This document shows, piece after piece, positions 9,590 to 29,328 of a stretch of 33,919 bases of DNA. The notes beneath the pieces are model-generated. The model made no database searches. It worked only from the letters and a program-made list of their open reading frames with translations, and had not been told where the DNA came from. Positions within the stretch are counted from its first letter, which is position 1, and the number at the start of each line of letters is the position of its first letter. The DNA is from an uncultured Chloroflexota bacterium (GTDB taxonomy: Bacteria; Chloroflexota; Chloroflexia; Chloroflexales; Chloroflexaceae): assembly GCA_937120965.1 (NCBI GenBank), contig CAKZKA010000275.1, positions 1 through 33,919 of the forward strand. Direction: 5' to 3'. The position numbers and the translations under genes are program-made.

Positions 9590-9608
9590 GCGGCTTTGAA
9601 TGAGCCGC
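9590..9608. other. Small hairpin downstream of murE
   Basis: GCGGCT and AGCCGC form a 6-bp stem around TTTGAAT just after the murE stop. There is no T run, so terminator function is doubtful. From about 9631 the gap contains CACCTGTTCACATAGGGGG, resembling one arm of the 113-bp element. Confidence 0.3.
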
Positions 9609-9680
9609 ATGCCCGGTTTCCCACGCTGCACCTGTTCACATAGGGGGTACTTCCTCGTCTCCCTGTCAGAAGAGAACGAA

Positions 9681-11078
9681 ATGCGCGCAGTCAGCGCCCC
9701 GCAGAGCGCCCACAGCCAGCGGCGCGGCTCCGTCCGCCGGCGCATGTTCACTCTGGCCCTTCCCGCCGTTGGCGAACAACTGCTCAATACCCTGGTCGGC
9801 CTGGCCGACGTGTTTCTGGTGGGCAATCTGGCCCCGGCAACCTCAGAGGCGCTTGGCTATGATAGCGCCGCCGCGCTGACAGCGGCAGGGCTGGGCAATC
9901 AGTTTACCTGGCTTGTGATGGTGTTGTTCATGGCCGTCGGCATTGGCGCCACGGCCCTGGTGGCCCGCGCTGTGGGCGCCCGCGACCAGGCGAGCCTGGC
10001 GCGCATCGTGCGCCAGACGGTGCTGACCGGCGCGCTGGTCGGCGCGCTGGCCACGGCCCTGGGCTGGCTGGCAGCCGAGCCGTTCCTGGCCGTGCTCAAC
10101 GCTCCCCTGGAGACCCGCGCGATCAGTGCCACGTACATCCGGATCACCGCGGCGACCTTCCTCCCCACGGCGTTGCTCCTGGCCATCACAGCCTCCCTGC
10201 GCGGCGCGGGCGATACCCGCACGCCCCTGCTGCTGATGCTGGTGGTGAATGCGGTGAACATCGCGATCACCTGGTCGCTGGTGAACGGGCAACTGGGCCT
10301 GCCCGCGCTGGGCGTCACCGGCGCGGCGATCGGCACTGCCCTGGCCCGCGGCCTGGGGGGCATTGCCGCAATGGGCTTGATGCTCCGGGGCCACGCTGGC
10401 CTGCGGTTGATCCTCGACTGGCGTCCCGATCCAGACATGCTGCGCCGCCTGGTGCGGATCGGGTTGCCCACGGCGGGCGAGCAGTTCGTATTCCAGGCGG
10501 CGCTGCTGATCTTCGTGCGCTTTGTGACGAATCTCGGCACCACGGCCTACGCCGCGCACAATATCACGATTACCATCGAGTCGGTGTCGTTTCTGCCGGG
10601 GATGGGCTACGCTGCTGCGACAGGGGCGCTGGTGGGGCAGGCCCTGGGCGCGCGTCGGCCCGCCGAGGCCGAGCGCAGCGCCTACGAGGGCCTGTTTCAG
10701 GGCGGGCTGATGATGAGCATCCTGGGCGGGTTCATGGTCCTGTTCCCCGAGCATCTGGTATCCTTGTTCACCGGCGACCCCATGGTCATCGCCGCGGCCA
10801 CACCCCCGCTGCGCGCCGCCGGGTTGGTGCAGCCGGCGCTGGCCGTGAGCTTCATTCTGCTCGGCGCCCTGCGGGGGGCGGGCGATACCCGCTGGCCCCT
10901 CTACAGTCGCCTGCTCACCACGTGGGTCGTGCGCCTGCCCCTCACCTTTGTGGTGGTGGGATGGCTCGGGGGCGGTTTGCCCGGTGTCTGGCTGGCGATG
11001 TGTACCGACTTCACCCTGCAGGCGATCCTGGTCCTGTGGCGGTTCAACTCCGGGAAGTGGCAGAAGATTGAGGTATGA
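9681..11078 (+). CDS. MATE-family multidrug/cation antiporter
   Basis: A 465-residue, very hydrophobic protein with two homologous six-helix halves typical of NorM/DinF-type exporters. MATE features include LALPAVGEQLLNTLVGLADVF-type helix 1, RGAGDTRTPLL in the first half and its counterpart RGAGDTRWPLY in the second, and GAAIGTALARG. It exports organic cations or drugs using Na+ or H+. ATG 9681 gives a normal family length; the longer frame from 9600 adds a non-homologous stretch from the repeat-like gap. The TGA stop (11076-11078) originally overlapped the ATG of the next gene and is now one copy of a target duplication flanking a 102-bp insertion. Confidence 0.9.
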   Translation: MRAVSAPQSAHSQRRGSVRRRMFTLALPAVGEQLLNTLVGLADVFLVGNLAPATSEALGYDSAAALTAAGLGNQFTWLVMVLFMAVGIGATALVARAVGARDQASLARIVRQTVLTGALVGALATALGWLAAEPFLAVLNAPLETRAISATYIRITAATFLPTALLLAITASLRGAGDTRTPLLLMLVVNAVNIAITWSLVNGQLGLPALGVTGAAIGTALARGLGGIAAMGLMLRGHAGLRLILDWRPDPDMLRRLVRIGLPTAGEQFVFQAALLIFVRFVTNLGTTAYAAHNITITIESVSFLPGMGYAAATGALVGQALGARRPAEAERSAYEGLFQGGLMMSILGGFMVLFPEHLVSLFTGDPMVIAAATPPLRAAGLVQPALAVSFILLGALRGAGDTRWPLYSRLLTTWVVRLPLTFVVVGWLGGGLPGVWLAMCTDFTLQAILVLWRFNSGKWQKIEV

Positions 11079-12058
11079 TACCATTTTGGATTTTAGATTT
11101 TGGATTGTGGATTGCCACGCTGGGCAGCACAACGCCTGAAATCGCTTCAGGCAATGCGGCATCATCAACGGTAATTGGTATGATTGACCTGGCTCCGCAC
11201 AACCCCTACACGCTCGAACTGGCGTCGCCGCTGATCGCTGCGGCGGGGAGCCTGGGCTACGGTATCGAGGTGGCCCGGCAACTCCGCCTCGGGCAACGCG
11301 ACGGCGGGCACGGCCTGGGCGCCCTGATTACCCGCAGCACCACCCTCCGCCCCCGGCGCGCCCATCCTCCGCCCGCGCTGATCGAAACCCCGGCAGGGCT
11401 GCTCTACACCGGCAGCGCGCAGAACCCCGGTCTGCGCGCGGTGCGCCAGCGCTTCGCGCCTATCTGGGCCACCTGGGAGACGCCGGTGATCTTGAGCGTC
11501 GCTGCCGCTGATGAGAACGAACTCGGCGCGTTGCTGGCCGAGCTGGAATCGCTCGACGGGGTGCGGGGCGTCGAGCTGCCGCTGGCGATGTTCGGGGTGA
11601 GCGCGCCTGCCGCGGCAGCGCGCCTGGTTGCGGCGGCCCGCGCAGCCACGCCGCTGCCGCTGATCGTGAAGTTGCCCGTCTATGCCGAGCACCTGGCGGA
11701 ACTGGGCGCAAGCGCCGCCGCTTCCGGGGCCGATGCGCTCAGCCTCAGCGATGGGTTGCCTGCCACCGCGGTGGTGGCAGGGCAGCGCAGCGATGGCCTC
11801 CTCTGCGGACCGGCGCTGCGCCCCCTGGGGTTGCGGGCCGTGGCGCATCTGGCCACAAAGGTGAACCTGCCACTGATCGGCGGCGGGGGCGTGATGCGCG
11901 CCGCCGACGCTCACGCCCTCTTTGAGGCCGGCGCCACCACCGTGGCCCTGGGCAGCGCGCTGCTCACCGACCTGCGCGCGGCAGGGCGCGTGCTGGCCGA
12001 CCTGGCGGTCACGAGCGACTCGTCGGCTGTTGATTCTCCTGATCGTTCAGATCCTTGA
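11075..12058 (+). CDS. Divergent dihydroorotate dehydrogenase-like flavoprotein
   Basis: The conserved body begins at ATG 11180 (292 residues). It resembles class 1 PyrD: LASPLIAAAGSLGYG, GALITRSTTLRPRR, SAQNPGLRAV (80-87), PLIVKLPVY, and the phosphate-binding GGGGVMRAADAHALFEAGA...VALGSALL. The segment that should be ISCPN with the catalytic Cys reads LPLAMFGVSAP, so normal dihydroorotate oxidation is doubtful; a related FMN enzyme is possible. The coordinates use ATG 11075, which overlaps the MATE stop (ATGA) and has GAGG upstream. From it the frame stays open through the 102-bp insertion and adds 35 residues (MIPFWILDFGLWIATLG...). The 11180 start is the ancestral-like N-terminus but lacks a ribosome-binding site. 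The 3' end overlaps mgtC by 50 bp. Confidence 0.75.
   Translation: MIPFWILDFGLWIATLGSTTPEIASGNAASSTVIGMIDLAPHNPYTLELASPLIAAAGSLGYGIEVARQLRLGQRDGGHGLGALITRSTTLRPRRAHPPPALIETPAGLLYTGSAQNPGLRAVRQRFAPIWATWETPVILSVAAADENELGALLAELESLDGVRGVELPLAMFGVSAPAAAARLVAAARAATPLPLIVKLPVYAEHLAELGASAAASGADALSLSDGLPATAVVAGQRSDGLLCGPALRPLGLRAVAHLATKVNLPLIGGGGVMRAADAHALFEAGATTVALGSALLTDLRAAGRVLADLAVTSDSSAVDSPDRSDP
11079..11180 (+). mobile_element. 102-bp MITE-like element, copy A, with TGA target duplication
   Basis: The ends are TACCATTTT and AATTGGTA inverted repeats, flanked by TGA at 11076-11078 and 11181-11183. An internal GCCTGAA...TTCAGGC stem is supported by a compensatory change in copy B. It has no gene of its own, so it would need a transposase in trans. 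Copy B (19128-19229, reversed) differs at about 7 of 102 positions. A 3-bp TNA duplication is known for some IS5-family (IS1031-type) elements. Confidence 0.85.
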
Positions 12059-19035: not shown

Positions 19036-19252
19036 GTGCGTGTTCACTCTTCTCCCGGGAGCGCAGGCAGCTTGCCCGCATCCAGGCCATTGCGGGGAGG
19101 GGACGCCCGCGCTCCCGGGGCGCTTTATACCAATTACCGTTGATGATGCCGCATTGCTTAAAGCGGTTTTAGGCGTTGTGCTGCCCAGTGTGGCAATCCA
19201 CAATCCAAAATCTAAAACCAAAAATGGTATTACCCCGGCTGTGAGCAGCTAC
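19036..19252 (+). mobile_element. 113-bp-type element interrupted by a 102-bp MITE
   Basis: The left end GTGCGTGTTCAC (19036-19047) and right end GTGAGCAGCTAC (19241-19252) are degenerate inverted repeats like those of the 2077-2189 element. The left body matches that element's hairpin (GGGAGCGCAGGC...GCCCGCGCTCCC). The insertion lies at a TTA followed by CCCC, exactly where the 2077-2189 copy reads TTACCCC without interruption. Confidence 0.75.
19128..19229 (-). mobile_element. 102-bp MITE-like element, copy B, with TTA target duplication
   Basis: Flanked by TTA at 19125-19127 and 19230-19232. Read on the minus strand it matches copy A (11079-11180) at about 95 of 102 positions. The hairpin stem changes in a paired way: G-C in A becomes A-T here. 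It is nested in the 19036-19252 element. Confidence 0.85.
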
Positions 19253-26461: not shown

Positions 26462-27577
26462 ATGCTGGAGGCCGAATCTTCCCCGGTCATGGAACCGGGT
26501 GACGCGGAGGCTCCGATGGTGCAGCGGCGACTCGTGACGACGCTGACGCGCGCGGTACTGTTCGGCGCCGGTTTGTTTTTGTTCATCCTGGCCCTTGAGT
26601 CGTTGAAACGTGGCGCCGGGGCCTACGGCTCGCTGGCCTCAGGCCTGTTCCGGGTCGACTCGCCGGCCGGGGCATTGGGAATGGGCTGGTTGCTCGCCTA
26701 CCTCTTCCTGAGTGGCTCGCCTGTGGCGGCCCTCGCCGTCTCGCTGTTCGCTGCCGGTTCGCTCGATGCCCTGCAAACCCTGATGATGATTACCGGCTCG
26801 CGCCTGGGCGCCTCTCTAGTGGTGCTGGTCACCGGATTGGTCTACGCCGCCCGCGGACGACATAACACCGAGGGTGTAGCGGTCGGGGTGCTGTCCCTGC
26901 TCACGACGGCGGTGATCTACCTGCCGGCGATGGCGCTGGCCTATGTGCTCGTAGCTGGCGAATACATCAGCGTGCCGGCGATCAGCGCCGCTACGCCCCT
27001 GACATCGGTGCTCGACCCGATCGTTGATCCGCTGGCTGGAGTTATGATCGAGCACATTTCGCCCCTGGGCCTGATCGGTACGGGCGTGGCGTTGCTGATG
27101 GGCGCCTTTGCCCTGCTCGACCGAGCCCTGCCCGCGATCCATCATCAGAGTCCGGCCCTGGGGCGCGTCGAGCGGCTGTCTGGCAAACCCTGGGCTATGT
27201 TTCTGCTGGGGGCCGGGATTACCAGCGCGACGCTGTCGGTCTCGGTCTCGGTGTCGGCGCTGGTGCCGCTGGCCGCGCGCGGGGTTGTGCGGCGCGAGCG
27301 GGTAGTGCCGTACATTATGGGCGCCAACATCACCACCTTTGTGGATACCGCGGTGGCGGCGCTGCTGGTGGCCGGTTCCGCTGCGTTTGCAATCGTGCTG
27401 ATCGAGATGGTCTGCGTGACGATCTTCTCACTGCTGGCGCTGGCCCTGTTCTACCATCCCCTCCAACGTTCCTTGTTGCGCGCGCAACAGGTGATTGTGC
27501 ACGATCACCGGGCTACGGCCGCGTTTGCCGCCGCGCTGGTGCTGCTGCCGCTGGGGTTGCTGCTACTCTTGCGCTGA
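26462..27577 (+). CDS. Na+/phosphate cotransporter-family (PF02690-like) membrane protein
   Basis: A 371-residue inner-membrane protein with many hydrophobic helices in two inverted repeats. The family's re-entrant motifs are represented by LSGSPVAALAVSL and TGSRLGASLVVLVTG in the first half and ATLSVSVSVSALVPLAARG and MGANITTFVDTAVAALL in the second, corresponding to the QSSSAT and GANIGT-type signatures. It probably moves phosphate with Na+. There is no C-terminal PhoU domain, unlike many longer bacterial members. The ATG follows AAAGGGGG. It has its own promoter at 26370-26397. Its last 73 bases overlap the 3' end of the convergent S41 gene. Confidence 0.82.
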   Translation: MLEAESSPVMEPGDAEAPMVQRRLVTTLTRAVLFGAGLFLFILALESLKRGAGAYGSLASGLFRVDSPAGALGMGWLLAYLFLSGSPVAALAVSLFAAGSLDALQTLMMITGSRLGASLVVLVTGLVYAARGRHNTEGVAVGVLSLLTTAVIYLPAMALAYVLVAGEYISVPAISAATPLTSVLDPIVDPLAGVMIEHISPLGLIGTGVALLMGAFALLDRALPAIHHQSPALGRVERLSGKPWAMFLLGAGITSATLSVSVSVSALVPLAARGVVRRERVVPYIMGANITTFVDTAVAALLVAGSAAFAIVLIEMVCVTIFSLLALALFYHPLQRSLLRAQQVIVHDHRATAAFAAALVLLPLGLLLLLR

Positions 27578-29103: not shown

Positions 29104-29328
29104 GATACCTGTTCACCTTTCTCCTGAGAGCGCGGGCATCTTGCCTGCGCGAACACGAATGCGGGCGGGACGCCCGCGCTCCCGGGGTGACGCCTTATAC
29201 CATTTCAGATTGTAGATTTTGGATTGCAGATTGTCGCGCAAGGCGTCCGGGTGCGCTTTGACGCAATGCTGCTTGCGGAGAGTTCAAGTGAAATTGGTAT
29301 TATATTGCCCCAACTGTGAACACGTACC
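29104..29328 (+). mobile_element. 113-bp-type element interrupted by a 102-bp MITE (second case)
   Basis: The left end GATACCTGTTCAC and right end GTGAACACGTACC (29316-29328) match the 2077-2189 element. The hairpin body is GAGAGCGCGGGC...GCCCGCGCTCCC, and GTGACGCCTTA precedes the insertion exactly as in the 2077-2189 copy (its minus strand). A 5-bp TATTG lies between the duplicated TTA and GCCCC. It sits upstream of the tRNA genes. Confidence 0.75.
29198..29299 (+). mobile_element. 102-bp MITE-like element, copy C, with TTA target duplication
   Basis: Ends TACCATTTC and GAAATTGGTA, flanked by TTA at 29195-29197 and 29300-29302. It shares the length, ends and an AGATTTTGGATTG segment with copies A and B, but the centre is diverged. 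It is nested in the 29104-29328 element, in the opposite orientation to copy B relative to the host element. Confidence 0.8.

What the first reader, a model, noticed from the sequence alone, without database searches (positions are those of the whole stretch)
11070..11190. A MITE inserted exactly into a stop/start ATGA overlap and kept both genes intact
Without the 102-bp element and one TGA, the junction reads GGTATGATTGACC: the MATE stop TGA overlapping the ATG of the PyrD-like gene. The element ends in ...GGTA, so the right-hand TGA copy again makes ATG (11180-11182), while the left copy is still the MATE stop. Element plus duplication is 105 bp, or 35 codons, and the frame from the original ATG (11075) is open throughout. 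The downstream protein can thus be made with a new 35-residue N-terminus or from the restored ATG. A mobile element has uncoupled, or fused itself to, a coupled gene pair.
Basis: partly seen in the sequence, partly recalled or inferred. Interest (0 to 1): 0.75.

Follow-up and report, generated by a model that had tools for sequence, protein, structure and literature searches.

The report
Mobile element inside a stop/start overlap
A 102-base jumping DNA element landed exactly in the four bases where one bacterial gene stops and the next begins, and because of how its ends and landing site are built, both genes survived; relatives without the insert prove the event, but the kind of event is known.

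Summary
A 102-bp element (11079-11180) flanked by TGA copies sits in an ATGA overlap between a MATE transporter gene and a PyrD-like gene. Three same-genus genomes hold the empty site. The element is a recent, high-copy MITE: its left end occurs about 180 times in this Chloroflexaceae-like genome, copies carry 3-bp TNA duplications, and 24 of 66 full-length copies are identical to this one. "Keeping both genes" follows from geometry: TNA targets include stop codons, and the element ends in ...GGTA, so a duplicated TGA always rebuilds ATG. Stop codons are common landing sites (about a quarter of copies examined). The window's copy is the only ATGA-overlap case found in five genomes of the genus. 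The 105-bp insertion is open from the old ATG and would add 35 residues, predicted disordered. Two further copies lie in frame inside genes; one (a glycosyltransferase) is confirmed by orthologues without it. "Uncoupled" is not shown: the original start region and ATGA are intact, so coupled reinitiation giving the longer protein is most likely. The transposase was not found. Related cases exist (Rickettsia RPEs, Chunjie, Coxiella QMITEs).

The parts
9600..11078 (+). MATE-family efflux transporter gene (492 aa); its stop TGA is the left copy of the target-site duplication
   Evidence: TIGR00797 matE 1.3e-85, above cut-off; PF01554; ORF
11075..11077 (+). original ATG of the PyrD-like gene, overlapping the MATE stop (ATGA); opens a 327-aa frame
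   Evidence: empty-site alleles in L032/L033/L034
11076..11078 (+). left target-site duplication TGA (= MATE stop codon)
11079..11180 (+). 102-bp MITE, tips TACCA...TGGTA
   Evidence: about 180 left ends in own genome; 24 of 66 exact-length copies identical to it
11181..11183 (+). right target-site duplication TGA; with A11180 it rebuilds ATG (11180-11182)
11180..12058 (+). PyrD-like (dihydroorotate dehydrogenase-like) gene from the rebuilt ATG (292 aa)
   Evidence: PF01180 1.8e-24; homologues in named genomes start at the same MIDLAPHNP
11075..11179 (+). 35-codon N-terminal extension MIPFWILDFGLWIATLGSTTPEIASGNAASSTVIG read from the element
   Evidence: absent from all five homologues aligned; predicted disordered, pLDDT about 27-32

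Best explanation
A recently amplified non-autonomous DNA element of the MITE type, moved in trans by an unidentified transposase that duplicates 3-bp TNA targets, inserted into the TGA of an ATGA stop/start overlap. SHOWN: the element, the duplication, the empty site in relatives, and the intact frames. FOLLOWS FROM SEQUENCE: because the target is TNA, insertion into a stop codon leaves the upstream stop in place; because the element ends in A on both strands, a TGA duplication always rebuilds ATG at the far end; and because 102 + 3 is a multiple of 3 and the relevant frame is open, the old ATG reads through into the downstream gene. INFERRED: ribosomes ending MATE still reinitiate at the unchanged ATG (11075) and make the PyrD-like protein mainly with a disordered 35-residue N-terminal tail, with some normal-length protein possible from the rebuilt ATG. 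The effect is probably near-neutral and the insertion survived for that reason.
For: Empty ATGA site in three congeners. High copy number with TNA duplications; recency. Other copies sit exactly in stop codons: about 20 of roughly 80 copies examined, and 8 of 41 entries in an 826-kb sample, with none in predicted coding sequence. Two other copies read in frame inside genes. The long-form start keeps GAGG (-6.2 kcal/mol) while the rebuilt start has -3.0. Extension predicted disordered, fold otherwise intact. Stop/start overlaps couple translation by termination-reinitiation in tested bacteria and archaea (PMC6728339).
Against: No transposase with TACCA tips was found, so the mobilising enzyme is unknown. 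No expression or proteomic data, so which start is used is not shown. The GAGG motif sits only 1 nt from ATG 11075, a poor spacing. In one congener (G001) the PyrD-like gene has a different upstream neighbour, so the MATE pairing is not universal.
Confidence: 0.82

Rival explanations
1. The insertion uncoupled the pair: the rebuilt ATG at 11180 is now the working start, reached by new ribosomes, and the old ATG is unused.
For: The rebuilt ATG restores the ancestral protein start exactly, as found in all homologues aligned, and the context GGTATGATTGACC is regenerated.
Against: The old start and its overlap with the MATE stop are unchanged and in frame through the element, so ribosomes starting there read over 11180. 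The rebuilt start has a weaker Shine-Dalgarno match. No sense-strand promoter match was found in the element.
Confidence: 0.25
2. The insertion harms the PyrD-like gene, because the tail destabilises the protein or mistargets it through its hydrophobic start, and the gene is on its way to decay.
For: The extension begins with a hydrophobic stretch (FWILDFGLWIA). The copy is identical to the commonest form in the genome, so the insertion is probably too recent for decay to show.
Against: The ORF is intact over 292 codons; the model shows the tail as separate from the fold.
Confidence: 0.12
3. The 35-codon tail was kept because it is useful: a new protein segment donated by the element.
For: The element is open in three frames in most variants, and each of the three frames is used in one gene of this genome.
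Against: No relatives of the tail outside the element; coding insertions are rare overall (0 of 41 in the sample); selection cannot be tested on one young copy.
Confidence: 0.05

Closest known systems
Rickettsia palindromic elements (RPEs) and other bacterial MITEs with in-frame protein fusions (reviewed in PMC2229807, PMC10969869)
   Same: Short non-autonomous repeat whose open frame is read as part of host proteins
   Different: Different host phylum and length; here most copies avoid coding sequence, and this one adds an N-terminus at a stop/start overlap
Chunjie MITE of Geobacter uraniireducens (Chen et al. 2008; known here only by its title and through the review PMC10969869)
   Same: Recently active MITE reported as inserted in an operon without disturbing its structure
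   Different: 178-235 bp; the paper itself is not held, so whether an ATGA overlap was involved is unknown to me
Coxiella QMITE1/QMITE2 (PMC5896051)
   Same: Copies overlap the ends of genes and supply or abut stop codons; one reported C-terminal extension of 33 aa
   Different: Larger elements; effects are at gene 3' ends, not on a downstream start
IS5-family, IS1031-like elements (DUF4096 transposases)
   Same: 3-bp TNA duplications, seen here in relatives
   Different: Tips are GAGCCTG-like, not TACCA

Membership tests
MITE | short, no transposase gene, high copy | tested here: met
   102 bp; about 180 left ends in 5.18 Mb
MITE | terminal inverted repeats | tested here: met
   TACCA/TGGTA in 37 distinct 102-mers, imperfect beyond 5 bp; the search itself required these 5 bp, so their invariance is partly by construction; repeats are short
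MITE | target-site duplication with empty site | tested here: met
   TNA duplications; empty sites
MITE | autonomous partner with matching ends | tested here: inconclusive
   PF01609 in own genome, PF13359, PF13340 and PF07592 in relatives, and paired tips over 826 kb: none matched
IS1031-type IS5 derivative | 3-bp TNA duplication | tested here: met
IS1031-type IS5 derivative | GAGCCTG-like tips | tested here: not met
   element tips are TACCA; relatives' DUF4096 elements have GAGCCTG/GAGCGTG
RPE-like in-frame element | read in frame within host genes in more than one case | tested here: met
   L018 glycosyltransferase and L022 acyltransferase-like ORFs, plus the window gene
RPE (homology) | sequence relation to Rickettsia palindromic elements | not tested
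   RPE sequences were not compared; Rfam gave no match for the region
Translationally coupled gene pair | overlapping stop/start conserved in relatives | tested here: met
   ATGA in three congeners
Translationally coupled gene pair | downstream expression depends on upstream translation | not testable with these tools
   needs a reporter experiment

The most novel reading that the evidence does not exclude
A mobile element whose target rule (TNA), tip sequence (ends in TA) and length (102 + 3 = 35 codons, three open frames) together make it unusually safe in dense operons: stop codons tolerate it, ATGA overlaps are rebuilt, and some coding insertions become 35-residue inserts. This geometry would have helped it reach about 180 copies.
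Probability: 0.2. Interest if true: 0.6.

Novelty: new variant of a known kind. Interest (0 to 1): 0.42.

Why it matters
It is a clean natural case, with empty-site controls, of a transposon entering the tightest gene junction in bacteria without breaking either gene. It makes a testable pair (with and without the insert) for asking whether reinitiation at ATGA tolerates downstream change and whether proteins accept element-encoded tails. It also shows a simple rule: a 3-bp TNA target makes stop codons safe landing sites.

Tried and rejected
Parent transposase: PF01609 (own genome), PF13359, PF13340 and PF07592 (relatives) gave no element with TACCA tips; long tip pairs in 826 kb held ordinary genes or pairs of separate MITEs. 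Structured RNA: fold no better than shuffles (z -0.06), no Rfam match, no terminator; one weak promoter-like match is on the opposite strand. Other ATGA-overlap insertions in the genus: six further pattern matches, none between two genes. L112 looked like an in-frame coding insertion but has a stop inside the element. The element peptides match no Pfam family above its cut-off. Literature searches showed no report of this junction type or of Chloroflexota MITEs of this kind in the lists returned, within an open-access library only.

Full report
OBSERVATION. The sequence is as described. The MATE gene (9600-11078) ends in TGA at 11076-11078, overlapping ATG at 11075-11077. A 102-bp stretch, TACCATTTTGG...GGTAATTGGTA (11079-11180), follows, then a second TGA (11181-11183). 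A11180 plus TG makes ATG again. The frame from 11075 is open to 12058, 327 codons. The MATE assignment is firm (TIGR00797 above its cut-off). The downstream protein matches the dihydroorotate dehydrogenase family in Pfam but falls below the cut-offs of the specific NCBIfam models, so 'PyrD-like' is the right wording.

EMPTY SITE. Searching 40 related genomes with the junction gave split hits in same-genus genomes in which the two flanks are adjacent. Read directly, three of them (L032, L033, L034) carry GTATGATTGACC with the ATGA overlap and no insert. A fourth congener has the downstream gene next to a different neighbour. Five homologues from named records start at MIDLAPHNP, i.e. at the rebuilt ATG, and lack the 35 residues. 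The 105 bp is therefore an insertion on this lineage. The organism is placed in or near Chloroflexaceae by its nearest named hits; it was not identified further.

THE ELEMENT. The same genome (5.18 Mb, 307 contigs) holds 181 left ends and 126 right-hand halves within 3 mismatches, versus none for the reversed controls. Among 99 copies with paired tips and matching 3-bp flanks, 66 are exactly 102 bp; other common lengths are 95 and 88, i.e. 7-bp steps matching the GATTTTG repeat at the left end. Duplications are TAA 40, TTA 36, TGA 14, TCA 9. Twenty-four of the 66 copies are identical to the window's, which implies recent spread. The sequence around the target is weakly palindromic, GT-N-TNA-N-AC, which is also what the element's own tip looks like next to its duplication; this fits the tandem pairs that share a TNA and fits the window's target, GGTATGA.

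WHY BOTH GENES SURVIVE. TNA includes the stop codons TAA and TGA. An insertion there leaves the upstream stop in place as the left copy of the duplication. The element ends in A whichever way round it lies, so a duplicated TGA always reads ATGA at the far end. Stop codons are in fact frequent targets: about 20 of roughly 80 copies examined coincide exactly with the stop of a predicted gene. Per available site, stop codons were hit about four times as often as intergenic TAA/TTA sites (6 of 91 versus 25 of 1520, Fisher p 0.006, somewhat optimistic because of the double count) and about three times for TGA/TCA (2 of 318 versus 8 of 4096, not significant). My gene caller is simple, and intergenic DNA includes promoters under selection, so I read this as tolerance, not as targeting. 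A pattern search of five genomes of the genus found no other insertion between a stop and start in ATGA overlap.

IN-FRAME FUSIONS ELSEWHERE. Most 102-bp variants are open in three of six frames. Two other copies lie inside genes in frame. One is in a GT4-type glycosyltransferase (L018; Pfam), where same-genus orthologues lack the segment (HLSD-[insert]-LHAHVIPIG versus HLRQGGIEAHVIPIG). The other is in the linker of an E3-binding/2-oxoacid dehydrogenase acyltransferase-like protein (L022), where the linker is too variable to place the empty site to the base. With the window's gene, each of the three open frames is used once. This resembles RPE insertions in Rickettsia (PMC2229807, PMC10969869).

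MECHANISM. The old start, its overlap and the GAGG before it are unchanged. Termination-reinitiation at such overlaps is documented (PMC6728339). I therefore expect mainly the extended protein. The model gives the tail pLDDT of about 27-32 and leaves the fold intact (six-sequence alignment, mean pLDDT 73.6). The rebuilt start has a weaker Shine-Dalgarno match (-3.0 versus -6.2 kcal/mol), though the spacing at the old start is poor. None of this replaces N-terminal mapping.

WHAT MOVES IT. Not found. IS1031-type IS5 elements in relatives also make TNA duplications, which shows that this clade has enzymes with that target rule, but their tips are GAGCCTG-like. I do not file the element under IS5.

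VERDICT. A real, well-controlled and rather elegant event of a known kind.

Noticed in passing
window 19125-19232 and 29195-29302: Two more copies of the same kind of element in this window, both with TTA duplications (19128-19229 in reverse; 29198-29299 of a different subfamily).
   Followed up: partly
L018:1501-1604 (G000:C230:5505-5608): Element copy in frame inside a GT4-type glycosyltransferase; orthologues in the genus lack the segment.
   Followed up: yes
L022:1501-1604 (G000:C128:23420-23523): Element copy in frame inside the linker of an E3-binding/2-oxoacid dehydrogenase acyltransferase-like gene.
   Followed up: partly
L072 (G000:C134 about 9887-10095) and L002 (G000:C250 about 26678-26893): Adjacent pairs of different subfamilies sharing one TNA between them, as if one copy inserted in the duplication of another.
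   Followed up: no
G000:C61, C266, C306, C57, C267 (rows): Several copies share a near-identical flank around the target (ACATGTGGGG-TAA-GGCGTCACC and close variants), suggesting insertion into, or co-duplication with, a second dispersed repeat.
   Followed up: no
L201, L203, L209, L216, L222, L224: IS1031-like IS5 elements in relatives with GAGCCTG-type tips and TNA duplications.
   Followed up: partly
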